Made by a program: the position numbers and the translations under genes. From positions 124,001 through 188,000 of the forward strand of contig NZ_JACATN010000006.1 in NCBI RefSeq assembly GCF_018603515.1: 64,000 nt of DNA, written 5' to 3'. Source of the stretch: Zobellia barbeyronii. GTDB lineage: Bacteria; Bacteroidota; Bacteroidia; Flavobacteriales; Flavobacteriaceae. The notes beneath the pieces were generated by a model. That model did no database searches. It worked only from the letters and a program-made list of their open reading frames with translations, and was not told where the DNA came from. This document shows, one piece after another, positions 4,847 through 28,888 of this stretch. Positions within the stretch are counted from its first letter, which is position 1. Each line of letters starts with the position of its first letter.

Positions 4847-5055
4847 TTAAAAAGTTTTTAGTGTTAATAGGATTGACCTGCGCCATGAATAGCTGCGTTG
4901 TGGTCAAAGAGTATGACAAGGTAAACCTCAGTGACCCTGATATGGCTTTGTCCGACAAGAAGTGTGACCGTAATGTTACCATCGCTCATTCTTATCGAGA
5001 GGCAGCAGTTGGTGCCAATGGAGGAAAAACAGGAGGCGGCTGCGGCTGCAATTAA
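4843..5055 (+). CDS. DUF4266 domain lipoprotein
   Basis: A 70-residue protein with a short hydrophobic leader and a lipobox-like ending at Cys18 (CAMNSC), so probably a small lipoprotein. The body contains KVNLSDPDMALSDKKCD and a HSYREAAVGANGGKTGGGCGCN tail, which match the DUF4266 family. The Gly/Cys-rich C-terminus and central Cys leave four cysteines in the mature protein, which could bind metal or form disulfides. It overlaps apbE by ATGA and precedes a DUF3570 gene. Function is unknown. The co-occurrence with ApbE suggests a flavin-based extracytoplasmic redox process, but I see no S/T-G-A-S/T flavinylation motif in this protein. Confidence 0.8.
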   Translation: MIKKFLVLIGLTCAMNSCVVVKEYDKVNLSDPDMALSDKKCDRNVTIAHSYREAAVGANGGKTGGGCGCN

Positions 5056-5081
5056 GTTAAGTGATAATACATAGAGGAATT

Positions 5082-6445: not shown

Positions 6446-7144
6446 TCAATCTAAATCTGCCAAACCAAAGTGAGATACTTTCTGTATGGTTGACGATATT
6501 GATAAAGCTGAGCAATATCCCTCTTGAGGAACAAAGGAGAATAATTTCCAGTCATTCTTTTCATTGGGATTCCATTGCGTTCTTAAAAGTTCAGGGCTAT
6601 TATCATTGATAGAAACTGAAAAAGAGGTCAAATCAAAGGATAGCCCAACTCCTTTTGCCTTTATGAAAGCCTCTTTTCGCGTCCAACAATTAAAAAAGGC
6701 TTTTGCTCTTTTCTCTTCAGGAAAAGCTAATAAAGAAGAAACCTCATCTTTGGAGAAAAAGCCTTCGGCTATTTTAGCTATATCAAAATTGGTTTTTATA
6801 CGCTCAACGTCTACTCCCACTTCACCTTTAGCTACAAAGGACAAAACAATAAGTTCACCGGAATGAGAAACATTAAACCGGACTAAAGTCTGCAAGTCGT
6901 AGCTTGGTTTTCCGAATTGATTATACGTAAAGAACACCTGGTCAGCATGGATATTTAGATAGCGCTCAGATAAAATTCTGAGCAAGCCTCTTGCTAAAAC
7001 ATAAGTTTTTCTGTCCTTTTCAAACTTAAACCTGTTTACTCTTTCGAGTTCATCTTGGGATAGTAGTTGTAAATACCGGTCAAGTTCATCAAAATCGTTT
7101 GAATTGAAATACCATATGTGCGCTTCACTCCCAGGTAGTTTCAT
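6446..7144 (-). CDS. 4'-phosphopantetheinyl transferase (Sfp/EntD type)
   Basis: A 232-residue Sfp-type enzyme that converts apo carrier proteins to the holo form with CoA. The family motifs are in order: RFNVSHSGELIVLSF, GVDVERIKTNFD with the metal-binding DxE, FFSKDEVSSLL, and FNCWTRKEAFIKAKGVGL containing W-x-x-K-E-A-x-x-K. Length is normal for Sfp. It starts 10 bases downstream of the C-A-T-TE NRPS stop and is the last gene of the leftward arm hupE-NRPS-PPTase. It most likely primes the three carrier domains encoded in this locus (Ser1028 of the terminal NRPS, the free carrier protein, and Ser1334 of the C-A-T NRPS). Its presence supports an autonomous, functional peptide pathway. Confidence 0.93.
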   Translation of the reverse strand: MKLPGSEAHIWYFNSNDFDELDRYLQLLSQDELERVNRFKFEKDRKTYVLARGLLRILSERYLNIHADQVFFTYNQFGKPSYDLQTLVRFNVSHSGELIVLSFVAKGEVGVDVERIKTNFDIAKIAEGFFSKDEVSSLLAFPEEKRAKAFFNCWTRKEAFIKAKGVGLSFDLTSFSVSINDNSPELLRTQWNPNEKNDWKLFSFVPQEGYCSALSISSTIQKVSHFGLADLD

Positions 7145-7154
7145 AGTTTCAAAT

Positions 7155-10100
7155 TTAGCCCGTTTTTCTAGTAGATTCGAACTCTTTCATACACGCATCT
7201 ATACTACTTGCTGTCTTTTTAACTATTGTAGTATCTTCAAAAAGTTTATCATGACTCCCTTCAACGGAAACAATTACAACTTCTTTATTTGTCATTTTCC
7301 TCCATGAAGCTATGACTTTAGTATTAAAATCGGTAGCTGATTTTTCGGTCAATAAAATCTGAATATCATTTGCTATCGGTTTCCAATCATATTCTCGGTA
7401 GAGCTTAATATGATTGTTATGTAGGGTGCGAATAAGTTTTTCGCTACCGCTACTGGTTAGCGTTTTGTATTTTTCTTTGAGTGGTAATATGAATTTTGAC
7501 CTTACAAATCGGTGAACCGTTTTTATAGGGTCAGCCTTTAACCGGTTTAACAGCGCAGATGTTCTAACATTAGTTTGAGACGGCGCAAAAAGACTAAGAT
7601 AATCTGCCATAGTATCTGCAATGATAAGATTAGCTCTATCGTTAGTTTTACCCAATAATCTCGTAACCTCCATACCTATTGCCGTATTATAACAATACGC
7701 AATAAAATGATACGGACCTTGAGGCTGCACTTTCTTAATCTCCGTTATAAAATCTATTGCCATTTCATGAACGCTTTTATGCAAAACAAGCTCATCTTCA
7801 TGATCGGAAGCTTGAAGGGCATAAACTGGACGGTCAGGATTTAAATGGTTGGCAAACTGATTGTAATAAAAGAAATGTGTACCACCAGAATGCAAACAAA
7901 ACAAAGGTGGTTTTGTACCGCTTGAACGAATAGGCACAAGGTGCTTAAATTCCGTCTTATCGAAAGCTTTAGTATTATGTTTATTTTGAGCTTCTAGGTA
8001 ACGAGTGAGCTCTGAAATAGTCTGATGCTCAAATAATTGATTAGGAGATACTACTAAGTTTTCCGCTTTCGCTTTCGAAATCACTTGTATACTCAAAATG
8101 GAATCTCCGCCAATATCGAAAAAATTCTCATGAATACCTATAGACGGCAAATCAAGAACTTCTTTCCAAATAGCTGCCATTTTCTTTTCTAGTTCCGATG
8201 AAGGAAGCTCAATCTTAGTATTTTCTTTTTCTTCTGCAGATGGTTTTAATTGAGCTAAACGTACCTTATCTACTTTACCATTGGGAAGAACTGGGAACTT
8301 GTCTACCTGAACAATCCTGGTTGGCACCATATATCCGGGCAATTTGGCTTTCAGAGTGCTTTTAAGAGCATCTGTCTCAACTTCTTCATCTGCTGTAACA
8401 TAAGCAACTAAACGCTTGTTGTCTTCCACCATAGCCACTGCAGCACTTACCGAGTCATATTCGGATATGGTTTTTTCTACCTCATCTAACTCAATTCTGA
8501 AACCACGTACCTTAACTTGATGATCAACTCTACCTAGAAATTCAATTGTACCATCATTTCTACACCTACCTAGGTCGCCCGTTTTATAAATTTTCTCATT
8601 TGAACCCTCTTTTAAAGGATTGTTTAAAAACACTTTTTCAGTAAGGTCCGTTCTATTAATATACCCATTTGACACACTTGGCCCACCAATATATATTTCC
8701 CCCACAGCTCCATAAGGAACTAATTTTTTTGATTCATTTAAAAGGTATACTTCTGCATTGGCAACTGCCTTACCTATTGACACCATATCAGAATCCTCGG
8801 TTCTTTCAACCTTATGAGCTATACACCAAACCGTGGCCTCCGTAGGACCGTATTCGTTATACAGGCCTGTATCTGGCAAGCTTTTAAAATGAAGATTACC
8901 AAGGGCTCGCGTACATGCTTCACCTGCTACAATAACTGTTTTAAAACTTTCCAATTTAGTTAAATTACCATGCTCAAGAATTACTTTATACAAAGTTGGA
9001 AGCATAAGAGTGTGACTAACCTTATGGCGCTGCACCAAGTCTTCTATTCTAGTAATATCTTGTTCTATTCTATTTTCAGTAAGTATAAGATTCCCTCCAG
9101 TGCACAGCGTCCAATAGATACTTGCCTTGGAACTATCAAACGAAATAGAGGACATTAATAAGAACGCGCTAGGATTTTCAGGATAGAAGTCCAATCTTCC
9201 TACAGTTGAATTGATTATATTCTTATGAGTTATGGGTACTCCCTTAGGTTTTCCTGTACTTCCGGAAGTGTATATGATGTATGCCAAATCATCTTCTCGG
9301 ACTTCCGGTAAGATGACGTCCATTGTTTTATTCGTTTCGATTTTATCAACTAAAATGACATTCTTGCTTGTAGAATCAAATACACTTGCTAAACTACTAT
9401 GGGATACCACAATATTACAATCCGCATCTTCTAAAATGAAATTTAGCCTTTCCATTGGATATTTAGGATCCATAGGTAGATATGCGCATCCGGCCTTAAG
9501 AATAGCTAACATGGAAACTATCATTTCTGTAGACCTATCCATACAAAGCATAACCACCTCGTTTCGCTTCTTTGTTCTTTGAAGAATGGCATGTGCAATT
9601 GCATCTGCCTGCTCATCAAGCTCTTGATAAGTTATAGACACATCATTAAAAGTCAATGCTTTATTTTGAGGAAACTGATGTGTTACATCAGCTATGATGT
9701 GGTGAATTGCTTTATATGATTTGAAATGATTTTTAGTTTCTTTTGACACCGGAAGCAAAACCTTCTCTTCCTCCAAAGACATCATTGGCAGATTACCAAT
9801 GTCCTCATTTGGATCAACAATTATTCCTTGCAATAAAATTTTATAATGCGATAGAAAACGAGAAATAGTTGCCGCTTCAAATAAATCTGTATCATATTCA
9901 AAGGCCAAAGAGAGTAGTCCATTGAATTCTGATATGGACAAGGTTAAATCGAACTTAGAAACTTCCGTATCAAATTCAGCTTCATCTATCAGTCTTAAAT
10001 CAGAACCAAAAGAAGGAGTCTCGGTTGCCGAATGGTACAGGAACATCACCTGAAAAAATGGACTAACCGCTAGGGAACGTTCTACTTTTAATTCCTTCAC

Positions 10101-11183
10101 TAAAACATCAAAAGGTACTTCCTTATTTGAAAAAGCAGAAAGTGTATTCTTTTTGACGACTTCAATTAAATCCGAAAAACTATTAGTGCTAAGCACCGTA
10201 CTTCTCAGTACGACCGTATTAATAAAAAACCCAAGAACTTTTTCCAGTGATTTCACGCTCCTATTAGCAATAGGGGTCCCTACAAGAATATCTGACTGGC
10301 CTGTGTATCTATATAGTAAAACATAATACACGGTAAGCAAAAAAACAAATGGCGTAGTCCCCAACTGTTTTGATTTGTTCAAAATATCCGATGACAGTTT
10401 TTTATCTAATGGTAAAACTTTTTGTTTACCTTTAAAAGAGGGTCTTGCTGGTCTTACACTGTCCGTTTGAAGATTTAATATAGGGAGATTACCAGATAGG
10501 GTATTCTTCCAATAATCCAGTTGTTTATTATCAATAGGTGTAGTACGTTCCCAATGGGCATAATCCGAAAATTGAATGGTTTCAGGTTTAGTCTCCAAAG
10601 AACTGCTAGCTATTAACTTCAAATAAGAATCCGCCAACTGTTGTTTCAATACATCAATAGACCATTCATCAATTACAATATGATGCAATGTGAAAAACAA
10701 TACAAATCTATGAGCTGAGTATTTTAATAATGAAACCCGAACCAGACCTGGCTCAGATAAATCAAACACTCTGGAAGACTGCTTACGCATTATAGTGTCA
10801 GCCTCTTCTTTCGCATCAATCTCAGTTAAATGACTAAGATCAAACTCAACAAGGTTTGGAATAGTATCATCAATTTTTGAAACTGGACTACCAGTAATAG
10901 CAGGATAATAAGACCTTAAAACCTCGTTAGTTAAGAATAAATGGTTGAGACTTTTCTTTAGCATCTCAACATTCAAATTCCCTTCAAAAGTCAGCGCTTC
11001 AGAATAGTTGTAGAAAGGATTGTCCGTATATAGCTGTTGCAAAAACCATATACGCTGCTGGCCGCTTGATAATGGAATTTGAACATCTACAGGAGCCTTG
11101 GATATCTGCAATAAAGCAGACTCCTTTGCCTCCCGATTTTTCCATCGGTTTAATAACGAACTTTTATCTGTGCTCTTTTCCAA
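7155..11183 (-). CDS. NRPS, C-A-T-TE termination module with Cys-type thioesterase
   Basis: A 1342-residue single-module synthetase. Condensation domain: about residues 30-450, with LHHIVIDEWS (H167, H168, D172). Adenylation domain: about 480-985, with A3 YIIYTSGSTGKPKG, A5 NEYGPTEATVW, A7 YKTGDLGRCRNDG, A8 KVRGFRIELDEVE and A10 PNGKVDK. By alignment to the GrsA positions I read the pocket as D-S-A-L-I-A-E-V-W-K and cannot assign a substrate. Carrier domain: DIGGDSILS with Ser1028. Thioesterase: about 1085-1342, starting PLFCLHSGGTH. Where GxSxG is expected it reads AYCYN, so Cys1164 replaces Ser; His1311 (GSHDKLF) is the probable catalytic His. It lies 21 bases after hupE and 10 bases before the PPTase in a leftward operon. 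It probably adds the last residue and releases the peptide built by the divergent arm. Confidence 0.95.
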   Translation of the reverse strand: MEKSTDKSSLLNRWKNREAKESALLQISKAPVDVQIPLSSGQQRIWFLQQLYTDNPFYNYSEALTFEGNLNVEMLKKSLNHLFLTNEVLRSYYPAITGSPVSKIDDTIPNLVEFDLSHLTEIDAKEEADTIMRKQSSRVFDLSEPGLVRVSLLKYSAHRFVLFFTLHHIVIDEWSIDVLKQQLADSYLKLIASSSLETKPETIQFSDYAHWERTTPIDNKQLDYWKNTLSGNLPILNLQTDSVRPARPSFKGKQKVLPLDKKLSSDILNKSKQLGTTPFVFLLTVYYVLLYRYTGQSDILVGTPIANRSVKSLEKVLGFFINTVVLRSTVLSTNSFSDLIEVVKKNTLSAFSNKEVPFDVLVKELKVERSLAVSPFFQVMFLYHSATETPSFGSDLRLIDEAEFDTEVSKFDLTLSISEFNGLLSLAFEYDTDLFEAATISRFLSHYKILLQGIIVDPNEDIGNLPMMSLEEEKVLLPVSKETKNHFKSYKAIHHIIADVTHQFPQNKALTFNDVSITYQELDEQADAIAHAILQRTKKRNEVVMLCMDRSTEMIVSMLAILKAGCAYLPMDPKYPMERLNFILEDADCNIVVSHSSLASVFDSTSKNVILVDKIETNKTMDVILPEVREDDLAYIIYTSGSTGKPKGVPITHKNIINSTVGRLDFYPENPSAFLLMSSISFDSSKASIYWTLCTGGNLILTENRIEQDITRIEDLVQRHKVSHTLMLPTLYKVILEHGNLTKLESFKTVIVAGEACTRALGNLHFKSLPDTGLYNEYGPTEATVWCIAHKVERTEDSDMVSIGKAVANAEVYLLNESKKLVPYGAVGEIYIGGPSVSNGYINRTDLTEKVFLNNPLKEGSNEKIYKTGDLGRCRNDGTIEFLGRVDHQVKVRGFRIELDEVEKTISEYDSVSAAVAMVEDNKRLVAYVTADEEVETDALKSTLKAKLPGYMVPTRIVQVDKFPVLPNGKVDKVRLAQLKPSAEEKENTKIELPSSELEKKMAAIWKEVLDLPSIGIHENFFDIGGDSILSIQVISKAKAENLVVSPNQLFEHQTISELTRYLEAQNKHNTKAFDKTEFKHLVPIRSSGTKPPLFCLHSGGTHFFYYNQFANHLNPDRPVYALQASDHEDELVLHKSVHEMAIDFITEIKKVQPQGPYHFIAYCYNTAIGMEVTRLLGKTNDRANLIIADTMADYLSLFAPSQTNVRTSALLNRLKADPIKTVHRFVRSKFILPLKEKYKTLTSSGSEKLIRTLHNNHIKLYREYDWKPIANDIQILLTEKSATDFNTKVIASWRKMTNKEVVIVSVEGSHDKLFEDTTIVKKTASSIDACMKEFESTRKTG

Positions 11184-12464: not shown

Positions 12465-12854
12465 AGCGCTGTCAATATAGATAATTATTTTATAGTTGCC
12501 TTTATTTTTTCGTTTTCAAGCACTCTATATCAGATAGAACAAGATTTACAAATACTAATATCTAAGAATTTTTATTTCCAAACCCTAGCACAATCGTGTA
12601 GAACGCCCCTACATAAACGCAAGCCTCTTCTTAGGAATTTGGCAATAAAGTAGCTTTAAAATTAATTATTAATAATAAATAGATATAAATATTTTCAATT
12701 TTTCGATGACTGACCTATAAAACTGTTATTCGATTACTTTTTTCCTTGATAAATTCACAAGCATAAATTATATTAGCCATGCTATGAATAAGAAGATTTC
12801 GGTATTGATCGAAATTCTTGTGGTTCTTGGTATGCTATCAACTAAACCATCAAT
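12465..12854. promoter_or_regulatory. Divergent control region of the peptide locus
   Basis: This 390-base AT-rich spacer separates hupE and the rightward NRPS arm and must hold both promoters. I saw no clear TAnnTTTG/TTTG pair. Visible structure includes AGCAT...ATGCT arms around an AT-rich centre (about 12760-12783), and an inverted repeat ATTTCG-N8-CGAAAT at 12796-12815 inside a 24-codon mini-ORF (12784-12858). A metal-responsive operator would be expected here, but no known Fur or Zur box is recognisable. Confidence 0.45.
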
Positions 12855-12858
12855 TTGA
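12784..12858 (+). CDS. Possible 24-residue leader peptide
   Basis: ATG at 12784 opens 24 codons encoding MNKKISVLIEILVVLGMLST followed by KPSI, ending TGA 12856-12858. The stop overlaps the TTG start (12855-12857) of the adenylation gene, an arrangement typical of translational coupling. The peptide is basic then hydrophobic. An inverted repeat (12796-12815) lies within it. No homology is known to me. It could be a chance ORF, or a leader needed to load ribosomes onto the TTG start. Confidence 0.35.
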   Translation: MNKKISVLIEILVVLGMLSTKPSI

Positions 12859-14432
12859 AATCAATTTACACTTTACCTCAGCTTATAGAAAATGTAGCAA
12901 GAGCATCACCTAACCGTGAAGCTTTTCGTTATTTAGAGGAAACCATATCTTATAGTGAACTCCATAAGAAAACAGACCAGCTAGCTTCGTATCTAATTTC
13001 AATAGGTATCAAAAAAGGCGACCGAGTAAGTATTTTCATGAACCGGTGTCTGGAAACTTCTATTGCTGTCTATGGTACCCTTAAAGCTGGAGCAGTATAT
13101 GTACCACTTGATACAGCTGCCCCCCTACACAAAACTGCTGCTATTATAAATGATTGCCAAATTAGCTGTTTGATTACCACAACCACTAAAAGAAGAAAGG
13201 TTGATACACTTTTAAATGAAAAGAGTACTTTAAATAGGGTAATTGGAGACACCCTTAAAAATTCAATTCCATCCGTGGCTTGGGACGATATTTTTTCTAT
13301 TGAGTTAGATGATTATATACCTCCTACTATTTTAGAACAAGATTTAGCCTTTATATTGTATACATCAGGGTCTACAGGTGTGCCAAAAGGTATCATGCAT
13401 ACACACTATAGTGGTTTAAGTTTGGCCAAAATTGCTGCAGATACCTACGATTTTAACTCTGATGACATATTCGGAAATCCAGCCCCGTTACATTTTGACC
13501 CCTCTACTTTTGGTTACTTTGTTGCGCCTTTAGTAGGTGCTACCACCGTAATCATCCCTGATGCTCACTTAAAAATGCCGGCCAGTCTGAGCGCGCTTAT
13601 TTCTAAGGAGAGAATTACAGTCTGGTATTCAGTTCCTCTAATGTTAATACAGCTATTACATAGTGAGACTTTAGACAAACATGATTTCAGTTCTTTAAGA
13701 TGGGTGCTTTTTGCAGGTGAAGTTTTTATAACCAAACATCTACGGGCTTTAATGAAAAAATGGCCGAATGCAAGATTCAGTAACTTATATGGACCGGCCG
13801 AACTCATTTTATGTACATATTACAATGTGCCTGAACCACCCAAAACAGATGAACCCATACCTATTGGAAAGGTTTGGAACAATACAGAGTACAAAATTCT
13901 AGACCAGAATAATAATGATGTGTCAAAAGGAGAAATAGGTCAATTAGCCATACGCTCAGCAACATTGATGCAGGGCTACTGGAATAACAAATCGCTCACG
14001 GAACAATCTTTACATAAAGTAACGATAGCAAGTGGTTATGACCATACTTATTATAAAACAGGAGATTTAGTAAAACTGAACAATCTCGGAGAACTATTGT
14101 TTCTGGGAAGAAATGACAGGCAGATTAAGCTTAGAGGATATCGTGTAGAGCTAGACGAAATAGAACTGACCCTTCTGAAGCATAAAGATGTAGAAGAAGT
14201 GGCCGTATTGGTATTAGGAAAAGATGAAGAAGTGCAAGAATTAGTTGCCGTCATTAAACCTTCGAAAGATGCGTCTATAAATCTCACCTACCTCATGGAA
14301 TTCTGCAAAGTAGAACTTCCTTCCTATGCCATTCCTAAAACTATTGAGTTTATGGATGATTTTCCCAGAACTAGCTCAGGTAAAATAAGCCGCAAAGAAA
14401 TAAGCAAACTATTGGAAGAACACCAATTATGA
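12855..14432 (+). CDS. Stand-alone NRPS adenylation domain
   Basis: A 525-residue amino-acid (or aryl-acid) adenylating enzyme with all A-domain cores: A3 FILYTSGSTGVPKGI, A4 LHFDPSTFGYF, A5 NLYGPAELILC, A7 YKTGDLVKLNNLG, A8 KLRGYRVELDEIE and A10 SSGKISRKEI. The pocket residues I read by alignment are D-P-F-Y-L-A-L-L-C-K, a code I cannot assign confidently; Asp235 suggests an alpha-amino acid. The start is TTG: an in-frame TAA lies at 12843-12845, the next ATG is far inside the conserved region, and MKSIYTLPQLIENVARASP is a normal A-domain N-terminus. It overlaps the carrier-protein gene by four bases (ATGA), so the pair likely acts as a split loading unit for the C-A-T NRPS that follows. Confidence 0.93.
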   Translation: MKSIYTLPQLIENVARASPNREAFRYLEETISYSELHKKTDQLASYLISIGIKKGDRVSIFMNRCLETSIAVYGTLKAGAVYVPLDTAAPLHKTAAIINDCQISCLITTTTKRRKVDTLLNEKSTLNRVIGDTLKNSIPSVAWDDIFSIELDDYIPPTILEQDLAFILYTSGSTGVPKGIMHTHYSGLSLAKIAADTYDFNSDDIFGNPAPLHFDPSTFGYFVAPLVGATTVIIPDAHLKMPASLSALISKERITVWYSVPLMLIQLLHSETLDKHDFSSLRWVLFAGEVFITKHLRALMKKWPNARFSNLYGPAELILCTYYNVPEPPKTDEPIPIGKVWNNTEYKILDQNNNDVSKGEIGQLAIRSATLMQGYWNNKSLTEQSLHKVTIASGYDHTYYKTGDLVKLNNLGELLFLGRNDRQIKLRGYRVELDEIELTLLKHKDVEEVAVLVLGKDEEVQELVAVIKPSKDASINLTYLMEFCKVELPSYAIPKTIEFMDDFPRTSSGKISRKEISKLLEEHQL

Positions 14433-14659
14433 AAAATAAAATCATAAGCTATATTAAAAGTAAACTAGCTACTGAAGTAGTTGAGGAAATAGATATAAAC
14501 GAAGACCTTTTAGGTAGCGGTTTAGTTGATTCATTAGGAATGGTGCAATTAGTACTTTTTATTGAGAATGAAGCGAACATAAAGGTAGCTCCGGAGGATA
14601 TGACCATAGAAAACTTCATGACCGTAAATCATATTTTGAAGTATATAGCACGTAAATAG
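14429..14659 (+). CDS. Acyl/peptidyl carrier protein
   Basis: A 76-residue carrier protein. The phosphopantetheine site is LLGSGLVDSLGMVQLVLFIE, where the serine of DSLG is the attachment residue. The rest is a normal four-helix layout (KIISYIKSKLATEVVEEI ... MTIENFMTVNHILKYIA). It overlaps the stand-alone A domain (ATGA) and precedes the C-A-T NRPS by 26 bases. It probably receives the amino acid activated by the upstream A domain and presents it to the N-terminal condensation domain of the next protein. The PPTase at 6446-7144 is the likely priming enzyme. Confidence 0.92.
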   Translation: MKNKIISYIKSKLATEVVEEIDINEDLLGSGLVDSLGMVQLVLFIENEANIKVAPEDMTIENFMTVNHILKYIARK

Positions 14660-14685: not shown

Positions 14686-17600
14686 ATGATGAACGAACAA
14701 AAAGATACATTTTTAGCACTTACAAAAAGTCAATCTGCTCTGTGGGCGGGTCAAAAAATGCATCCCAATGTTCCCCTTCATAATGTGGTATATACTTTTG
14801 AGATTACGGGCGATATAGACAAGATGACATTTGAGAAAGCATTTGAAAGGCTAATTGAAACCTCAGATATCCTCCGAATTATTTTTTCCGAAGAAAGAGG
14901 GATTCCAAATCAGACTGTTCGCAGTGAAGTAGATTTTTCATTAGAATTTATAGACCTCACTCATCATCAAAACAATACAACTATTGACAAATGGCTCCAT
15001 GAACGCACGTTGAAACTCATGGATATTTCTGAACGAGTATTTGATACCGCCTTATTAAAAACAGGAAGCAACAACTATGTATGGTTTTTAAAACTACATC
15101 ATTTGGTTACAGATGCAGTATCTAATTCCATTCTCTACCGGCGGATGAGTTCTTTCTATACAAGCGAAATAACTAATACCATGGCGGCCGTAGAAAATTT
15201 CCCATCGTTTTCAGACTATATCAAATTTGAACATGAACAAAGTACTACGAGTGTAAATAACGACAGTAATAAGTATTGGGAAGAAAGGACAAAAAACTTG
15301 CTAGAAAAACCTAAACTGTACGGAGAAAAGATTGACAATAGTACTGCGGCAAGACGAATTACTTTAGACCTCGGTACACAGCGTTCACAACAACTCCGCG
15401 AATTGGCCAACCGCAAGGAATTTAAAGGATGGACGGAGGATTTAACCCTTTTCAACATATTTCTTACGTTATATTCCTCCTATATCTACAGGGTAAGTGG
15501 TCAAGAAAAGATAGCTATTGGTGCACCAGCACATAATAGGTCTACCAGAGAATTTCAAAAAACTGCGGGACTTTTTATTGAAGTACTGCCATTGGTTATT
15601 GATATTGAAAATGAAGACACTTTCATAAGTCTTTTTAATCGTATTAAAATAGAGACCAATAATTATTTAAGAAACGCGCGTCCAGGAAGTGCTACAGTTC
15701 AAACAAATAGTAGTTCTAATACTATTTTAAATTTTATACATGCGGATTTCCCTGATTTTAACGGTTTTCCCACAAAAACAGAATGGATTCATTCTGACCA
15801 TATAGATAGTAGTCATGCCCTACGCACTCATGTTTATGACATGAACAATAGTGGTGATTTTAAAATAGCTTTCGATATAAATTGCAATACTTTTTCCGAT
15901 GCTACGGCAGAAGAAATTCCTGTTCATTTTCTAAATTTGTTAGATGCTTTTTTAAGAAATTCTGAACAATCAATACGAAAGCCTGGATTGCTAGACACAG
16001 CTCCTGTTGACGAATTGCTAATTGAAGAACTATCTACTCCGTTCAAATCAGTAATTCAAAGTTTTGAGGAAAATATAAATAATTCTCCCAATTCCGTAGC
16101 GTTACAATTTGTAAATGAAATTCTTACATACAACATACTAAACAAAAAAGCGAACCAACTAGCCCACTATCTAAAAACTAAGGGCATTAATGAAAAAAGT
16201 AGAATAGCGCTTCATTTCAACAGAGGTTCCGATTATGTAATTAGTGTACTTGCTGTTCTTAAAACTGGTGCAGCCTTTACCCCTATTGCTTCCGACCAAC
16301 CTGTAGAACGCGTAAAGTATATTACCTCAAATTCAAAGAGTGTACTTTTACTTAGTCAAAGCGACCTTATTTCAAAAATAGATATTCCGGATATTGGTAT
16401 TTTGGATGTTCAAAAGGAGAGTTCAATTATAAACGAACAGCCTTTTACTAATTTAGAAATACAGCCCTCGCCTGAAAGTTTGTCCTATATACTTTATACA
16501 TCGGGAAGTACAGGAAAACCAAAAGGTGTTCTCATTTCTCAACAAGCGCTTTCTAATTATATTTTTTGGGCAAAAGAAGCATATCACACTAATGAAAAAT
16601 CCATTTTTCCTTTATTCACATCAATAGGTTTTGACCTAACTATTACATCTACATTTTTGCCATTGGTTAGCGGTGGAAGGATAAATGTTTATAAAGAATC
16701 CGTAACCGGTCCTGATGTTAGCTTATTGAAAGTTTTAGATGACAATCTTGTTAACTATATTAAGTTGACTCCTTCTCATTTAGCTCTATTTAAAGAAAAA
16801 GAATTGAGTACGTCATACATTCACACCATGATTGTAGGTGGCGAAGAACTTAAATCTAATCTAGCAAAATCTATAAAAAAAGCATTCCCTAACGAACTTA
16901 AGATATATAATGAATATGGACCCACGGAAGCTACCGTGGGGTGTATTGTAGCAGAGTACAATGAAAGTAACCATACGAAAGCTACTGTACCCATTGGACT
17001 GCCAATTTCTAATATGTCCGCTTATGTATTGGACGAATATAAAAACAGAGTGCCAAAAGGTGTTGTGGGTGAACTCCATCTAAGTGGTTTAGGACTTTCT
17101 GATGGCTATGCAAATGACCTTTCCTTAACTGCTGAAAAATTTATTGAAAATCCATTTATTTCTGATAAGAAAATGTACCATACGGGAGATTTGGCCAGAA
17201 TTAATAAAAATGGAAGTTTTGAATATATGGGTAGGTCTGATGAGCAAGTAAAACTCAGAGGGCATCGTATTGAACTATCGGATATAGAAAGTAACCTAAC
17301 CGAATTTTCTGAAATAGAAAATTGCGCCGTTGTTTTAGTGGAAAGCAAAAAAACAACTCCAGAAGATGAAGTGGTTAACTGTACCAAATGCGGCCTACCT
17401 TCTAACTACCCAAATACCGATTTTGATGAAAAGGGAGTGTGCCACCTTTGCACTGCTTTTGAAACATATAAAGATAAAACCGAACGCTATTTTAAGAATG
17501 ACGAGCAATTGGTTTCTTTATTGACCTCAAAAAGAGAGTCCAATCCTAATTATGATTGTATTTCACTTTTAAGTGGTGGTAAAGATAGCACCTATGTTTT

Positions 17601-18828
17601 GGCAAGACTCATTAATATGGGCCTTAAAGTCTTGGCTTTCACGATGGATAACGGTTATATATCCGAACAAGCCAAAGCAAACGTAGACCGTATAGTAAAG
17701 AAACTTGGTGTAGACCATGTATATGGCCATACACCGCATATGAACGAGATATTTGTTGATAGCCTAAACCAACATCACAATGTATGTAACGGTTGTTTTA
17801 AAACCATTTATACGCTTAGCACTAAAATAGCACTTGAAAATAATATTCCGTTTATAGTTACCGGTCTTAGTCGCGGACAGTTTTTTGAAACCAGACTTAC
17901 CGAAGAACTTTTTTGGGATGAAGACCTAGACACTGCCAAAATAGACAATACCATTTTAGAAGCTAGAAAATTGTATCACCAAGAGTCCGATGCCGTAAAA
18001 AGGCTTTTGGATGTATCCATATTTGATGACGAAAGCGTTTTTGAAAAAGTAGAGTTCGTAGATTTTTATAGATTTAGTGATGTTAGCTTGGAAGAAATGC
18101 TGGTTTATTTAAAAGATAAAGCCAGTTGGATACGCCCAACGGACACAGGAAGGTCTACCAACTGTTTAATTAATCAGGTTGGTATTTATGTGCATAAAAA
18201 AGATTTAGGGTATAGCAACTATTCTTTCCCTTATAGTTGGGATGTGAGACTAGGCCATAAAACAAGAGATGAAAGTCTAGAGGAAATCAATGAAGTTATA
18301 GACGAAAAAGAAGTGTTGCGAATAATGGATGAAATTGGGTATGAATCATCACAACCACAATGGGAAAACAACTCAAAATTGGTTGCCTATTACACTGGAA
18401 AACAAGATATATCCATAAAAGAGATTCAAAATTTCTTAGCAAAGCAATTGCCATCCTATATGCTTCCTACGATTTATAAACACGTAGATGAAATGCCACT
18501 TACCAAAAATGGAAAGGTAGACAAGAAAGGTCTGAAAAACCTTTCTGCAGTTCAATTGGCTATGAATACCACATACTCTGCTCCAAGAAATGAAATTGAC
18601 GAACTCTTAGAGAAAATTTGGGTAGAGGTCCTGCAATTGAATAAAGTTGGGATTCATGATGATTTTATTACTCTGGGAGGTCATTCACTGGCGGCCATCC
18701 GGGTTACAGCTCGTATTAACGAAGAAATAGAATATAATTTCCCATTAAATAAGATATTTGAAATGCCTACTATTGCAGAATATTCAAATTATATAGAAGA
18801 AACATTGAAATCTCTTTTAGAAGAGTAA
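14686..18828 (+). CDS. NRPS C-A-T with PP-loop ATPase inserted in the A domain
   Basis: A 1380-residue module. Condensation domain: about 10-440, with LHHLVTDAVS (H138, H139, D143). Adenylation domain starts near 455, with A3 YILYTSGSTGKPKG, A4 GFDLTITST, A5 NEYGPTEATVG and A8 KLRGHRIELSDIE. I read its pocket as DLTKIGEVGK, resembling asparagine codes. After A8, at about residues 893-1228, a foreign domain intervenes: zinc-ribbon cysteines C899/C902 and C919/C922, the PP-loop SGGKDS (963-968), CNGC (1034-1037), and GRSTNCLIN with a DVRLGHKTRDE ending. This is the layout of N-acetyl-sugar amidotransferases (WbpG/PseA type). The A domain then resumes (KLVAYYTGK, PLTKNGKVDK) and a carrier domain follows (LGGHS, Ser1334). 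There is no thioesterase, so the chain passes to the C-A-T-TE protein. The insert may turn a tethered amide into an amidine or thioamide; this is inference. Confidence 0.93.
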   Translation: MMNEQKDTFLALTKSQSALWAGQKMHPNVPLHNVVYTFEITGDIDKMTFEKAFERLIETSDILRIIFSEERGIPNQTVRSEVDFSLEFIDLTHHQNNTTIDKWLHERTLKLMDISERVFDTALLKTGSNNYVWFLKLHHLVTDAVSNSILYRRMSSFYTSEITNTMAAVENFPSFSDYIKFEHEQSTTSVNNDSNKYWEERTKNLLEKPKLYGEKIDNSTAARRITLDLGTQRSQQLRELANRKEFKGWTEDLTLFNIFLTLYSSYIYRVSGQEKIAIGAPAHNRSTREFQKTAGLFIEVLPLVIDIENEDTFISLFNRIKIETNNYLRNARPGSATVQTNSSSNTILNFIHADFPDFNGFPTKTEWIHSDHIDSSHALRTHVYDMNNSGDFKIAFDINCNTFSDATAEEIPVHFLNLLDAFLRNSEQSIRKPGLLDTAPVDELLIEELSTPFKSVIQSFEENINNSPNSVALQFVNEILTYNILNKKANQLAHYLKTKGINEKSRIALHFNRGSDYVISVLAVLKTGAAFTPIASDQPVERVKYITSNSKSVLLLSQSDLISKIDIPDIGILDVQKESSIINEQPFTNLEIQPSPESLSYILYTSGSTGKPKGVLISQQALSNYIFWAKEAYHTNEKSIFPLFTSIGFDLTITSTFLPLVSGGRINVYKESVTGPDVSLLKVLDDNLVNYIKLTPSHLALFKEKELSTSYIHTMIVGGEELKSNLAKSIKKAFPNELKIYNEYGPTEATVGCIVAEYNESNHTKATVPIGLPISNMSAYVLDEYKNRVPKGVVGELHLSGLGLSDGYANDLSLTAEKFIENPFISDKKMYHTGDLARINKNGSFEYMGRSDEQVKLRGHRIELSDIESNLTEFSEIENCAVVLVESKKTTPEDEVVNCTKCGLPSNYPNTDFDEKGVCHLCTAFETYKDKTERYFKNDEQLVSLLTSKRESNPNYDCISLLSGGKDSTYVLARLINMGLKVLAFTMDNGYISEQAKANVDRIVKKLGVDHVYGHTPHMNEIFVDSLNQHHNVCNGCFKTIYTLSTKIALENNIPFIVTGLSRGQFFETRLTEELFWDEDLDTAKIDNTILEARKLYHQESDAVKRLLDVSIFDDESVFEKVEFVDFYRFSDVSLEEMLVYLKDKASWIRPTDTGRSTNCLINQVGIYVHKKDLGYSNYSFPYSWDVRLGHKTRDESLEEINEVIDEKEVLRIMDEIGYESSQPQWENNSKLVAYYTGKQDISIKEIQNFLAKQLPSYMLPTIYKHVDEMPLTKNGKVDKKGLKNLSAVQLAMNTTYSAPRNEIDELLEKIWVEVLQLNKVGIHDDFITLGGHSLAAIRVTARINEEIEYNFPLNKIFEMPTIAEYSNYIEETLKSLLEE
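17371..18372 (+). other. Inserted N-acetyl-sugar amidotransferase-like PP-loop domain
   Basis: This marks the in-frame insert within the NRPS adenylation domain. It begins just before the CTKC zinc-ribbon pair and ends before KLVAYY, where the A-domain C-terminal subdomain resumes. Landmarks are FDEKGVCHLCTAFE, SGGKDS, FTMDNGYISEQAKANVDRI, GLSRGQFFETRL and DTGRSTNCLIN. All fit one continuous PP-loop amidotransferase fold of about 330 residues. The reading frame is intact through both junctions, and base composition looks like the surrounding gene. Confidence 0.85.
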
Positions 18829-18863: not shown

Positions 18864-19349
18864 ATGCAACGCAAAAAAGAACATACCGGTGCTTCTACCA
18901 GACCAGAGCTTATAAAATATATAGCTTTGGTGATTGCTCTATGCTATGTCCTGAACCCCTTGCATCATCAAATAAGTACTGTGTTTCATAAGGTTTCACA
19001 TGCTTTAGAGATGCCTGACTCCGTTATTGGTCATGACTCTTTTTCAGATAATGAAAATATGCATCATGCCCATGAACATGTTGCCGAAGCAAGTAACCAC
19101 GAACACAAATTAATTAAAATCATTGATTCCATTTTTGATGCTTCTAATACTAATGAATCATCAAAAGATAAGCTGCTTGCTGATTTTAAGTTTGATAAAC
19201 ATATTACCACAGATTATTATCTCTACAACCACATTCTTTATGTGAGCTTTTTACAAAACTTTAAATCCGTAGAAAATAGCCTTAAATTAGGCCATTCTAC
19301 CATCTTAGAAGAGCCGCCACGGCAAGCAGTCCTTCCCACTTCCATTTAG
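18864..19349 (+). CDS. Small His-rich membrane-anchored protein, possible metal binder
   Basis: A 161-residue protein with no family I recognise. A hydrophobic segment at about residues 18-33 (YIALVIALCYVLNPLHH) could be a signal anchor. The following stretch is strikingly rich in histidine: LHHQISTVFHKVSHALE, VIGHDSF, NMHHAHEHVAEASNHEHK. The C-terminal half (FDKHITTDYYLYNHILYVSF) has few histidines. It starts 35 bases after the NRPS stop and precedes the TonB receptor by about 100 bases on the same strand. His clusters next to a HupE permease and a TonB receptor suggest a periplasmic metal chaperone or sensor. The metal and mechanism are unknown. Confidence 0.7.
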   Translation: MQRKKEHTGASTRPELIKYIALVIALCYVLNPLHHQISTVFHKVSHALEMPDSVIGHDSFSDNENMHHAHEHVAEASNHEHKLIKIIDSIFDASNTNESSKDKLLADFKFDKHITTDYYLYNHILYVSFLQNFKSVENSLKLGHSTILEEPPRQAVLPTSI

Positions 19350-19451: not shown

Positions 19452-21686
19452 ATGATGAAAAAATATATTACAATTATAGTACTACTAACTTTTTACATCG
19501 GCGTCAATGCCCATGATTTAAGCGGTACTGTAACCAACGAAGACCAAATTGCCCTAGAAGGTGTTGGTGTTTATAATAAAACAACCGGCGGATATACTTA
19601 CACGAATGTCTCAGGTTATTTTGAACTTGATGATATCTCTCTTGGGGATGTTATTTATTTTTATAGCTTAGGTTATAAAAACCATCAATTAACCATTTCT
19701 GAAAGCCTTTTAGATGGCAAAATCAATGTTGCCCTAAAAGAATCTGCAGTATCACTAGATCAAGTAGTGCTAGTATCTAAGGTTAATGCCTTAAGTAATT
19801 TTGTTAATGTTGATGTTAAGGCCAACCCGGTAAAATCTTCTCAAGAAATATTAAGAAAAGTACCAGGACTAATAATCGGTCAACATGCTGGTGGAGGAAA
19901 AGCAGAGCAGATTTTCTTAAGAGGATTTGATATTGATCACGGAACAGATTTAGCAATTAACGTAGATGGCCTTCCTGTAAATATGGTTTCCCATGCTCAC
20001 GGACAAGGTTATTCAGATATGCACTTTATCATTCCCGAAACCATTGATAACATTGACTTTGGAAAAGGGCCATATTACGCTAACAAGGGTAATTTTAATA
20101 CCGCAGGATATATCGATTTAAAAACCAAACGGAAACTTGACGAAAATTTGATTTCAGCGGAAATCGGTCAGTTCAATACCTTGCGTACCGTAGGTTTGTT
20201 CAAAGTAGCTGAAAGCGACTTTAACAATGCTTATATCGCTTCTGAACTAGTTCTAACGGACGGTCCTTTTGATTCTTCACAAAATTTCAACCGGATTAAT
20301 ATGATGGGGCGCTACACGTTCAATAATCGTGAAGACCAAGATTTGAGTGTTACAATTTCTCATTTTCAGAGTAAGTGGGATGCTTCTGGTCAAGTTCCAC
20401 AACGTACAATTGATGCTGGGTTGATTGGCAGATTTGGAGCAATTGATGATACTGAAGGTGGAAATACCAGCCGAAGTAACATCCTATTAAATCATAGTAA
20501 ACAGTTAGATGAACATTCTAGAGTAAAATCTAAAGCATATTTGACCAAGTATGACTTTGAGCTTTTTTCCAATTTTACATTTTTCTTGGAAGATCCTATA
20601 AATGGTGACCAAATTAGACAATATGAAGACCGTACCGTAATAGGTGCCGAGACTAGCTATGAGCATTCCGTTCATATTGGTGACCATGATTCTCAGTTAA
20701 AATATGAATCAGGTATAGGACTTAGATATGATGATGTAAATGATGTACAATTATCTCGAACAAAAAACCGTCAAACTTTATTGGAGCGCCTTGCCTATGG
20801 CGACGTTGACGAACTGAATGCCTATGGCTTCTTTGATGTTACTTATAAGAGAAATAAATGGACGTTGAATACAGGCCTGCGATTAGACTATTTTAAGTTC
20901 GACTATGTAAACAAACTAACCGAAACTTACGATAGCAAAAGTGAGAACAAGCTTTTTCTTGGACCAAAACTGAATATTATCTACGCCCCTACTCCCAACT
21001 TACAGCTTTTTGCTAAATCTGGTATTGGCTATCACTCAAACGATACTAGAGTTGTAACAGCAAACAACGGCAAGGAGATACTACCCTTAGCCTATGGAGG
21101 TGATTTAGGAGCTATTTTCAAACCTGTAGATAAATTGGTTATCAACGCCGCCTTATGGACACTGTTTTTAGACCAAGAATTTGTTTATGTTGGAGACGCG
21201 GGTATAGTAGAGCCAAGCGGTAAAACCAAGAGACTAGGTGTTGATTTTGGCTTGCGTTATCAATTAACTGATTGGCTTTATGCTAATGGAGACGTTAATT
21301 ACACTTATGCAAGAAGTACTGAAGAACCTGACGGAGCGGACTTTATTCCGCTTGCACCAGACTTAACATCTTCAGCTGGACTCTCATTTATAGATATCAA
21401 GAATTTTTCTGGAGGAATTAACTACAAGTACGTCAAAAACAGACCCGCGAACGAAGATAATTCTATAATTGCCGAAGGTTATTTTGTAACAGACTTGAAC
21501 CTGAATTATTCAATTAAGAATTGGACCTTGGGTGTTATTGTCGAAAACCTTTTTGATACAGAATGGAACGAAACCCAATTTGCTACAGAAAGTAGATTAT
21601 TTAATGAAGCCGAACCGGTTGAAGAAATTCACTTTACACCAGGTATTCCGTTTTACCTAAGAGGGAAGATATCGGTAAACTTTTAG
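19452..21686 (+). CDS. TonB-dependent outer-membrane receptor
   Basis: A 744-residue receptor. Signal peptide to about residue 20, then a CarboxypepD_reg-like domain (LSGTVTNEDQIALEGVGVY, to about residue 100), a plug domain (NPVKSSQEILRKVPGLIIG, IFLRGFDIDHGTDLAINVDG, VSHAHGQGYSDMHFIIPE) and a 22-strand-type barrel ending in the terminal strand FYLRGKISVNF. The plug motif with HGTDLA and SHAHGQGY is a subgroup pattern I associate with metal-related receptors rather than SusC glycan receptors; there is no SusD gene. The annotated start has a second ATG three bases later. It closes the rightward peptide arm and is followed by a strong terminator. It probably imports the metal-loaded peptide product or a related metal complex. 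Ligand identity is inference. Confidence 0.9.
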   Translation: MMKKYITIIVLLTFYIGVNAHDLSGTVTNEDQIALEGVGVYNKTTGGYTYTNVSGYFELDDISLGDVIYFYSLGYKNHQLTISESLLDGKINVALKESAVSLDQVVLVSKVNALSNFVNVDVKANPVKSSQEILRKVPGLIIGQHAGGGKAEQIFLRGFDIDHGTDLAINVDGLPVNMVSHAHGQGYSDMHFIIPETIDNIDFGKGPYYANKGNFNTAGYIDLKTKRKLDENLISAEIGQFNTLRTVGLFKVAESDFNNAYIASELVLTDGPFDSSQNFNRINMMGRYTFNNREDQDLSVTISHFQSKWDASGQVPQRTIDAGLIGRFGAIDDTEGGNTSRSNILLNHSKQLDEHSRVKSKAYLTKYDFELFSNFTFFLEDPINGDQIRQYEDRTVIGAETSYEHSVHIGDHDSQLKYESGIGLRYDDVNDVQLSRTKNRQTLLERLAYGDVDELNAYGFFDVTYKRNKWTLNTGLRLDYFKFDYVNKLTETYDSKSENKLFLGPKLNIIYAPTPNLQLFAKSGIGYHSNDTRVVTANNGKEILPLAYGGDLGAIFKPVDKLVINAALWTLFLDQEFVYVGDAGIVEPSGKTKRLGVDFGLRYQLTDWLYANGDVNYTYARSTEEPDGADFIPLAPDLTSSAGLSFIDIKNFSGGINYKYVKNRPANEDNSIIAEGYFVTDLNLNYSIKNWTLGVIVENLFDTEWNETQFATESRLFNEAEPVEEIHFTPGIPFYLRGKISVNF

Positions 21687-21886: not shown

Positions 21887-22627
21887 ATGTTTCACTTTTT
21901 CAATAAGAAAAAATTTTTGGTCGATTATCTCGATGGCTTTATCGACATACATAATCATATATTACCAGGCATAGATGATGGGGCTAAGACTGTAGATGAA
22001 TCTATTGCTCTTATAAGGTCTTTTTCTGAATTTGGGGTCAAGCATTTTATTGCCACTCCACATATCATGTCTAACTACTATCCTAATACCAGAGAAACTA
22101 TTGGAGCTTCGCTAACAGAGTTGAAAAATGCACTGTTGCAAAATGGCTTAAAGGATGTTTCAGTAGAAGCTTCCGCTGAACATATGATTGATGATAATTT
22201 TGAGTCTTTATTAGAAAATGAGGGCATCATGCCACTGAAGAAAGATTATTTATTGGTAGAAATGTCATATTTACAACCACCAATAAACTTTGAGGAAGCA
22301 ATTATAAAAACAGCTTCGAAACGCTTTTTTCCTATACTGGCACATCCTGAGAGATATGGGTTTTTACACCATAGAAAGAAAAGATATCAGGAATACAAAG
22401 ATAATGGTATCCAATTTCAAATGAATCTTTTATCCCTTAGTGAGTACTACGGAAAAGAAGTGCCAAAAGTAGCGGTAGAACTTTTAGAGAAAGGTTTAAT
22501 AGATTTTGTTGCATCTGATGTACATAATATGTCTCAGCTCAATGCGCTAAAAAAACTAACCCTTTCTAAAAAAATGATAGAGCAACTTCTCCCATTAATC
22601 AACAATACCATTCAGACCTTTTATTAA
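21887..22627 (+). CDS. CpsB/CapC-type PHP tyrosine phosphatase
   Basis: A 246-residue PHP-fold phosphatase that removes phosphate from the C-terminal tyrosines of Wzc-type kinases. Metal-binding motifs are in order: FIDIHNHILPGIDDGAKT near the N-terminus, FIATPHI, SAEHMIDD, LAHPERY and ASDVHN. Length is normal for the family. It stands alone with its own promoter and is bounded downstream by a bidirectional terminator. Its partner kinase is encoded at 29225-31609 on the other strand, so this gene probably marks the left end of the EPS locus. A phosphatase role in cycling Wzc is the family expectation. Confidence 0.9.
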   Translation: MFHFFNKKKFLVDYLDGFIDIHNHILPGIDDGAKTVDESIALIRSFSEFGVKHFIATPHIMSNYYPNTRETIGASLTELKNALLQNGLKDVSVEASAEHMIDDNFESLLENEGIMPLKKDYLLVEMSYLQPPINFEEAIIKTASKRFFPILAHPERYGFLHHRKKRYQEYKDNGIQFQMNLLSLSEYYGKEVPKVAVELLEKGLIDFVASDVHNMSQLNALKKLTLSKKMIEQLLPLINNTIQTFY

Positions 22628-28846: not shown

Positions 28847-28888
28847 ATCAAAGAATGTTTGGCATTTTCTTAATAAAGGTGTTCTCAC

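What the first reader, a model, noticed from the sequence alone, without database searches (positions are those of the whole stretch)
14686..18828. NRPS adenylation domain interrupted by an N-acetyl-sugar amidotransferase-like PP-loop ATPase
Seen: between A8 and A9 of an apparently intact A domain lies a continuous insert of about 330 residues. It has CxxC...CxxC zinc-ribbon pairs (C899/902, C919/922), SGGKDS (963-968), CNGC (1034-1037) and an STNCLIN/DVRLGHKTRDE C-terminus, in the order of WbpG/PseA-type amidotransferases. Known: A domains can be interrupted at this site, mostly by methyltransferases; WbpG-type enzymes turn an acetamido group into an acetamidine with ammonia from partner proteins; other PP-loop enzymes transfer sulfur. 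Inference: the insert activates a carbonyl of the tethered or adenylated residue and replaces oxygen with N or S. I do not recall this fusion being characterised.
Basis: partly seen in the sequence, partly recalled or inferred. Interest (0 to 1): 0.93.

Follow-up and report, generated by a model that had tools for sequence, protein, structure and literature searches.

The report
NRPS module with nitrile-forming asparagine insert
A peptide-making enzyme of a marine bacterium carries, inside the part that probably picks asparagine, an extra ATP-using domain of a kind already known from the antibiotics albicidin and cystobactamid, where it turns asparagine into a nitrile; here it sits in a gene cluster that looks built for metal uptake.

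Summary
ORF 14686-18828 (1380 aa) is C-A-[337-aa insert]-A'-PCP; the insert (residues 890-1226) lies between A8 and A9 of an otherwise complete A domain. Relatives in several phyla carry the same fusion in one frame, so it is no assembly artefact.

The insert is a PP-loop enzyme with the N-acetyl sugar amidotransferase fold, but its counterpart is the AMDH domain of AlbIV (albicidin) and CysH (cystobactamid), which dehydrates carrier-bound Asn to beta-cyanoalanine or isomerises it (PMC7966384). All 44 insert-bearing A domains checked show Asn-type motifs. Amidine or thioamide formation is unlikely.

Two points add something. The insert has an invariant CxxC...C triad (C1034, C1037, C1160; 46 of 46 rows), as in [4Fe-4S] PP-loop enzymes; this could explain CysH's unassigned brown colour. 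And the module sits in a conserved flavobacterial cluster with a TonB receptor, HupE/UreJ-type and His-rich proteins, and a His-type second NRPS: perhaps an X-cyanoalanine-His metallophore (inferred).

New member of a known kind.

The parts
14686..18828 (+). NRPS module C-A(AMDH)-PCP, 1380 aa
   Evidence: single ORF; domains
14707..16017 (+). condensation domain, residues 8-444
   Evidence: PF00668 E 2.8e-63
16063..17352 (+). A domain up to A8, residues 460-889; specificity code DLTKIGEVG (Asn type)
   Evidence: PF00501, TIGR01733; code by alignment; boundary
17353..18363 (+). 337-aa AMDH-type insert, residues 890-1226
   Evidence: boundaries from the neighbouring uninterrupted A domain; TIGR03573 E 1.3e-37, below cut-off; model pLDDT 89.2; fold match 8wex
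17380..17451 (+). two CxxC pairs (C899/C902, C919/C922), zinc-ribbon-like
   Evidence: invariant in A2, 25 rows; the equivalent motif binds Zn in LpNASAT (PMC10607449)
17572..17589 (+). PP-loop SGGKDS, residues 963-968
   Evidence: invariant in A2
17785..17796 (+). CNGC, residues 1034-1037; first two cysteines of the CxxC...C triad
   Evidence: both Cys in 46 of 46 rows tried; aligns with the LarE CxxC
18154..18165 (+). STNC, residues 1157-1160; third cysteine of the triad
   Evidence: 46 of 46 rows tried
18364..18543 (+). C-terminal part of the A domain (A9-A10, NGKVDKK), residues 1227-1286
   Evidence: PF13193; alignment
18604..18795 (+). carrier (PCP) domain, residues 1307-1370
   Evidence: PF00550 E 9.8e-11
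12855..14432 (+). stand-alone A domain, probably loads the first residue; code DPFYLALL, substrate not assigned
   Evidence: L-prolyl-carrier ligase 6o6e among its PDB matches
14429..14659 (+). free carrier protein, 76 aa
   Evidence: letters; kin of cluster c4, one member of which is annotated phosphopantetheine-binding (L058); not scanned with Pfam
7155..11183 (-). second NRPS, C-A-PCP-TE, code DSALIAEVW (His type)
   Evidence: Pfam; code; DSALIAEVWK listed for His in PMC12283262
11205..12464 (-). HupE/UreJ_2 family protein
   Evidence: PF13795 E 2.9e-46; 23 of 23 flavobacterial loci
6446..7144 (-). 4'-phosphopantetheinyl transferase
18864..19349 (+). 161-aa His-rich protein (15 His), no Pfam or NCBIfam family
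   Evidence: 23 of 23 flavobacterial loci
19452..21686 (+). TonB-dependent outer-membrane receptor
   Evidence: Pfam; 23 of 23 flavobacterial loci

Best explanation
The insert is an AMDH-type domain (asparagine side-chain amide dehydratase/aminomutase) acting in cis. The A domain adenylates L-Asn and loads it on the module's own carrier domain; the insert then uses ATP (PP-loop, probably to AMP and PPi) to activate the side-chain amide oxygen and eliminates it, giving beta-cyanoalanyl-PCP, or in some settings isomerises Asn to isoAsn. The C domain joins the residue to the amino acid loaded by the stand-alone A/PCP pair, and the divergent second NRPS adds His and releases the product with its thioesterase. 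Shown here: anatomy, Asn-type pocket, homology, predicted fold, conserved PP-loop and cysteines. Inferred: the reaction (by homology to CysH/AlbIV), the order of assembly, a [4Fe-4S] cluster on C1034/C1037/C1160, and a metal-scavenging role for the product.
For: Size (337 aa against 342 aa in AlbIV and a 38-kDa domain in CysH) and SGGKD motif match. [quoted passage not shown] Here 42 of 42 insert-bearing A domains have code D-L-[TS]-K-[IVL]-G-E-[VI]-G and no other A domain read in the same call does; 44 of 44 have the motifs. PMC12283262 links DLTKIGEVGK to Asn and cyanoalanine. L053 and L054, whose inserts are 49% identical to the window's, lie in cystobactamid-like clusters: TauD dioxygenases (both), an O-methyltransferase (L053 by Pfam; L054 by clustering), a chorismate-binding enzyme (L054) and four of four other A domains read without Asp235, as for aryl acids. 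Tree: the 27 AMDH rows plus two relatives lie on one side of a 100/99 branch, apart from 22 amidotransferase-like proteins. Fold: 8wex first, then TtuA, YcfA, mmLarE.
Against: The AlbIV and CysH sequences themselves were not compared; L053/L054 stand in for CysH, and no tool here names their product. Identity to those is about half, so a shifted reaction is possible. [quoted passage not shown] the other two papers say inside the A domain. The CxxC...C triad is the ligand set of sulfur-transferring enzymes, which leaves thiolation open. The best NCBIfam model for the insert is WbuX, although below its cut-off. The tree warns of long branches meeting, and the AMDH rows alone are not one clade in it because L059 and L061 fall among them. 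The product is unknown.
Confidence: 0.8

Rival explanations
1. Sulfur insertion: the triad holds a [4Fe-4S] cluster that carries sulfide and converts Asn-PCP to its side-chain thioamide, as LarE and TtuA thiolate their substrates.
For: CxxC...C triad in 46 of 46 rows, the ligand pattern of [4Fe-4S] LarE; CNGC aligns with the LarE CxxC; TtuA, YcfA and LarE among the fold matches.
Against: CysH gives loss of water, and albicidin and a cystobactamid contain the nitrile. The LarE model TIGR00268 scores 26.3 bits on this insert against a cut-off of 150. No sulfur-carrier or desulfurase family among the 30 window proteins scanned, small proteins not covered.
Confidence: 0.1
2. Amidine formation: the insert works like WbpG/WbuX and adds ammonia to the activated Asn amide, giving an amidinoalanine residue.
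For: WbuX is the best NCBIfam model for the insert and 8wex the best fold match.
Against: Score below the family cut-off; the STNC motif is absent from 21 of 21 stand-alone amidotransferase-like proteins read; no HisH/HisF-type family among the 30 window proteins scanned; the relative CysH eliminates water instead.
Confidence: 0.06
3. Aminomutase first: an AMDH domain, but in this cluster it mainly makes isoasparagine and the nitrile is a side product (a variant of the best explanation, so its odds lie inside it).
For: CysH does both; isoAsn linkers are prominent when CysJ hydroxylates the substrate first, and also appear without CysJ.
Against: No TauD family (CysJ type) among the 30 window proteins scanned; in cystobactamid a considerable amount of nitrile was seen only after deletion of CysJ.
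Confidence: 0.15

Closest known systems
AMDH domain of CysH (cystobactamid) and AlbIV (albicidin)
   Same: PP-loop domain of about 340 aa in an Asn-activating NRPS unit, SGGKD motif; the myxobacterial stand-ins L053/L054 share the insert's invariant residues
   Different: Here inside a C-A-PCP module feeding a short peptide in a TonB/HupE cluster, not in a stand-alone A-T unit that serves an aryl-peptide assembly line; no TauD dioxygenase or O-methyltransferase family among the 30 window proteins scanned; a CysB-like shuttle was not tested for
N-acetyl sugar amidotransferases (TIGR03573, WbpG/WbuX, LpNASAT 8WEX)
   Same: Fold, PP-loop, tetracysteine Zn motif
   Different: Score below family cut-off; STNC in 0 of 21 stand-alone proteins read, though 3 of 21 have a CxxC at the CNGC position; carrier-bound amino acid (inferred) instead of a sugar
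[4Fe-4S] PP-loop sulfur enzymes (LarE, TtuA)
   Same: PP-loop, CxxC and a further Cys (LarE); three-Cys cluster (TtuA); CxxC aligned
   Different: Not a LarE by score; no thiolated product known from AMDH relatives in the passages seen
A domains interrupted by methyltransferases or oxidases
   Same: Insertion between a8 and a9 (review passages)
   Different: Another inserted enzyme

Membership tests
AMDH domain (AlbIV/CysH type) | about 340-aa insert within an A domain | tested here: met
   residues 890-1226, A domain complete on both sides; for AMDH itself the site is taken from papers, which differ for AlbIV
AMDH domain (AlbIV/CysH type) | host A domain specific for L-Asn | tested here: met
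   code DLTKIGEVG, listed for Asn/cyanoalanine in PMC12283262; specificity itself not assayed
AMDH domain (AlbIV/CysH type) | SGGKD ATP-binding motif | tested here: met
   SGGKDS 963-968
AMDH domain (AlbIV/CysH type) | clusters with CysH-like domains, apart from sugar amidotransferases | tested here: met
   100/99 branch, with L053/L054 as stand-ins for CysH; long-branch warning given by the tool; CysH and AlbIV letters not compared
AMDH domain (AlbIV/CysH type) | dehydrates or isomerises Asn-PCP | not testable with these tools
   needs enzyme assay
N-acetyl sugar amidotransferase TIGR03573 | curated score | tested here: not met
   130 bits against 203.2
N-acetyl sugar amidotransferase TIGR03573 | PP-loop and tetracysteine motif | tested here: met
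N-acetyl sugar amidotransferase TIGR03573 | neighbouring HisH/HisF-like ammonia suppliers (recalled for WbpG; seen beside the L058 WbuX) | tested here: not met
   none among the 30 window proteins scanned; six ORFs beyond 57 kb not scanned
LarE sulfur insertase TIGR00268 | curated score | tested here: not met
   26.3 bits against 150
Tri-Cys [4Fe-4S] PP-loop enzymes | CxxC and a further Cys after the PP-loop | tested here: met
   46 of 46 rows; CxxC aligned with LarE, third Cys not reached by those alignments
Tri-Cys [4Fe-4S] PP-loop enzymes | bound [4Fe-4S] cluster | not testable with these tools
   needs spectroscopy; brown colour of CysH reported

The most novel reading that the evidence does not exclude
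AMDH domains are [4Fe-4S] PP-loop enzymes: C1034, C1037 and C1160 hold a cluster with one open iron that takes part in ATP-driven dehydration of an amide to a nitrile (and in the aminomutase reaction), a use of the tri-Cys cluster outside sulfur transfer; and in Zobellia and relatives the domain builds a nitrile-bearing tripeptide metallophore, X-cyanoalanine-His, taken up through the adjacent TonB receptor.
Probability: 0.35. Interest if true: 0.7.

Novelty: new member of a known kind. Interest (0 to 1): 0.42.

Why it matters
How AMDH domains make nitriles is stated as unknown in the paper that named them; that paper saw a dark brown CysH, looked for a CxxCxxxC motif, did not find it, and left the metal open. 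The invariant CxxC...C triad makes a specific, cheap test possible: Fe/S content, EPR and three Cys variants. The cluster predicts a small nitrile- and His-containing peptide tied to metal uptake in marine flavobacteria. I made no literature search for such a compound, so I do not claim that none is known.

Tried and rejected
Amidine and thioamide readings: considered and lowered, see rivals. Assembly fusion: rejected by the same fusion in other genomes. Viral contigs: no match. Defence systems: no PADLOC match. Promoter footprint between the HupE gene and the next + strand gene: palindromes with 6-7 bp arms were shared by at most 2 of 17 regions; a TCGAT-n-ATCGA dyad occurs in 5 of 17 against at most 3 in 20 mononucleotide shuffles, which ignore relatedness; no known metal-regulator site was tested for by model. 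Third-Cys equivalence with LarE: both profile alignments stopped before it. Substrate of the stand-alone A domain: not settled; codes differ among loci, and the most specific PDB relative is a prolyl ligase, ranked behind linear gramicidin synthase. L053:2-1021, a possible tailoring gene, matched no Pfam family at E 1e-5. One search read one strand only and missed loci; repeated on both strands. Paper searches with no hit. One search was flooded by unrelated words (851 papers, 30 listed). Genome tallies at E <= 1e-40: 2 of 395 Bacteroidota, window included (read's table), 1 of 398 in the phylum of G486, the centre itself, 3 of 193 in the phylum of G489, one being the centre.
Full report
Observation. 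The ORF at 14686-18828 is a single 1380-aa frame with C, A, WbuX-like, A C-terminal and PCP segments. As a yardstick from the same genome I aligned the uninterrupted A domain of the neighbouring NRPS (7155-11183): it matches residues 453-889 (32% identity) and 1227-1286 (42%), the two pieces overlapping by four of its own residues, so the insert is residues 890-1226, between A8 and A9. A model of the A-insert-PCP stretch has mean pLDDT 84.3 and pTM 0.63; strands are predicted just before (model 422-430) and after (776-783) the insert, with low-confidence linkers at 433-439 and 767-773. The insert alone is predicted with pLDDT 89.2 and pTM 0.88.

Is it real? Of 99 genomes (98 relatives and the window genome), 18 have a match at E <= 1e-5; 13 of the 18, the window's own included, are full-length in frames of 1374-1417 aa, and 5 are partial matches to separate proteins in frames of 380-418 aa. 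Genome contigs gave 39 loci, among them Flavobacteriaceae, Saprospiraceae, Cytophagales, Microvirga, Bradyrhizobium, Mesorhizobium, Gemmatimonadetes, Acidobacteria and Myxococcales; the patterns came from the window insert, so near relatives are favoured. L019, named Zobellia amurskyensis, has the same place as G004, which is of the window's genus, so the window is from Zobellia. Plasmids gave 15 records, the best three at 52, 51 and 40% identity. Several loci are near-copies (for example L058/L060), so counts are of rows, not of independent events.

What the insert is. The best PDB fold match is the Legionella N-acetyl sugar amidotransferase 8wex (E 1e-12, query TM 0.61-0.64, 19% identity), then TtuA, YcfA and mmLarE. 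I read parts 1 and 2 of 4 of the 8wex paper (PMC10607449): it describes the PP-loop and a Zn tetracysteine motif, both present here. The functional counterpart is elsewhere. [quoted passage not shown] PMC7966384 (abstract and passages) shows that the related domain of CysH, named AMDH, dehydrates carrier-bound Asn to beta-cyanoalanine in vitro, that its deletion abolishes nitrile and isoAsn products, and that BLAST homologues are all inserted into Asn-specific A domains. A search for AMDH with cystobactamid found three papers: that one, its correction (listing only) and the review. A lapcin paper (PMC8837603, passages) treats its homologous module as installing plain Asn. Cociancich 2015 was not seen, only cited.

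Tests made here. (1) Asn coupling: 42 of 42 insert-bearing A domains read have D-L-[TS]-K-[IVL]-G-E-[VI]-G, and no other A domain in that call does; 44 of 44 by motif. This repeats, on the loci fetched here, what PMC7966384 reported. (2) Stand-ins for CysH: L053 and L054 carry the insert at 49% identity to the window's, beside TauD dioxygenases, an O-methyltransferase (L053; the same cluster c38 in L054), a chorismate-binding enzyme (L054) and A domains without Asp235 (four of four others read), as expected of cystobactamid-like clusters. (3) Tree: 27 AMDH rows and two relatives (L059, L061) lie on one side of a 100/99 branch from 22 amidotransferase-like proteins; the tool warns that long branches meet there, the AMDH rows alone need 3 changes because L059 and L061 fall among them, and these two are long. 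(4) Cysteines: CxxC and the STNC-type cysteine after the PP-loop occur in 46 of 46 rows tried (L024 has CDGC). Left out of this count: truncated L056 and duplicate copies L001-L013, L062, L097, L098. Among stand-alone amidotransferase-like proteins 0 of 21 read have STNC and 3 of 21 (L066, L075, L076) have a CWHC at the CxxC position (L070 and L080 could not be read); those three also share a later EC in their letters, so a triad may not be exclusive to AMDH. The L058 WbuX has neither motif.

Iron-sulfur reading. LarE of Thermotoga binds [4Fe-4S] through CxxC and a more distant Cys (PMC9283937 passages); TtuA also uses three Cys (PMC7138817 passages). The AMDH profile aligns CNGC with the CxxC of mmLarE (named so) and of four Bacteroidota LarE proteins; the third Cys was not reached. 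PMC7966384 says that CysH is dark brown and that no CxxCxxxC motif was found. I infer that the triad holds a [4Fe-4S] cluster. This is not shown.

Surroundings. In 23 of 23 flavobacterial loci (window included) the module has a HupE/UreJ_2 gene, a His-rich protein of 146-176 aa (6-19 His) and a TonB-dependent receptor; the stand-alone A domain was found in 19 of 23 and the free PCP in 19 of 23 by the ORF calling and clustering used, which can miss genes. The second NRPS has the His-type code DSAL[IVM]AEVW in 17 of 17 flavobacterial loci where it could be read (6 of 23 could not), and in the fused Roseovarius synthetase; DSALIAEVWK is listed for His in PMC12283262. The product is inferred to be X-cyanoalanine (or isoAsn)-His. 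With a free N-terminal amine, X-X-His is an ATCUN-like Cu/Ni site (recalled chemistry), which would fit a metallophore; the promoter scan gave no support for metal control. Loci L033, L035, L036, L050, L057, L058 and L060 have an acyl-CoA-dehydrogenase-like gene of cluster c6 near the module; the two of these that were scanned, L033 and L058, score best against PigA and prolyl-PCP dehydrogenase models, below the cut-offs, so X may be pyrrole-2-carboxyl there. The window shows no such gene in its first 26 kb.

Verdict. The fusion is real and striking, but its kind is known. What I add is the cluster context and the tri-Cys prediction.

Noticed in passing
L040, L041, L043-L046, L055 (Microvirga, Mesorhizobium, Bradyrhizobium): A small cluster: A(AMDH)-PCP frame of 994-1003 aa, too short for a C domain, with an acyl-CoA-dehydrogenase-like gene and a PPTase-like gene (7 of 7 by clustering) and a thioesterase-like gene of cluster c10 (6 of 7, not L046); the L040 members were scanned: acyl-CoA dehydrogenase, TubC_N plus Thioesterase. 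The product could be a free modified Asn.
   Followed up: partly
L059:18062-22112 (Streptomyces plasmid): An AMDH-like domain N-terminal to a C domain instead of inserted in an A domain, next to an A-PCP protein with a non-Asn code (DARHASLMT) and an annotated asnB.
   Followed up: partly
L061:14752-15900 (Streptomyces plasmid): A stand-alone relative with CWPC and STNC beside an annotated acyl carrier protein and a ketosynthase: a possible trans-acting version.
   Followed up: no
L066, L075, L076: Amidotransferase-like stand-alone proteins with CWHC at the CxxC position and a shared later EC (letters); perhaps a further Fe-S-binding subgroup.
   Followed up: no
L058 and L060: Two Rhodobacterales plasmids share the same region: a synthetase fused as C-A(AMDH)-PCP-C-A-PCP-TE (letters read in L058; cut by the record end in L060) and, about 12 kb away, a WbuX/HisF/HisH set in a polysaccharide cluster.
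   Followed up: partly
window 29225-58600: Mostly polysaccharide genes (Wzz, Poly_export, UDP-sugar dehydrogenases, epimerases, glycosyl transferase, Wzy_C, MurJ), with large PKD-domain proteins at 22718-28888 and 42875-46705; a CpsB-like gene lies at 21887-22627.
   Followed up: no
window 3806-6383: ApbE and DUF3570 genes side by side upstream of the PPTase, reminiscent (recalled) of flavinylated extracytosolic redox systems.
   Followed up: no
intergenic regions after the HupE gene (window 12465-12854): TCGAT-n-ATCGA dyad in 5 of 17 regions against at most 3 in 20 shuffles.
   Followed up: no
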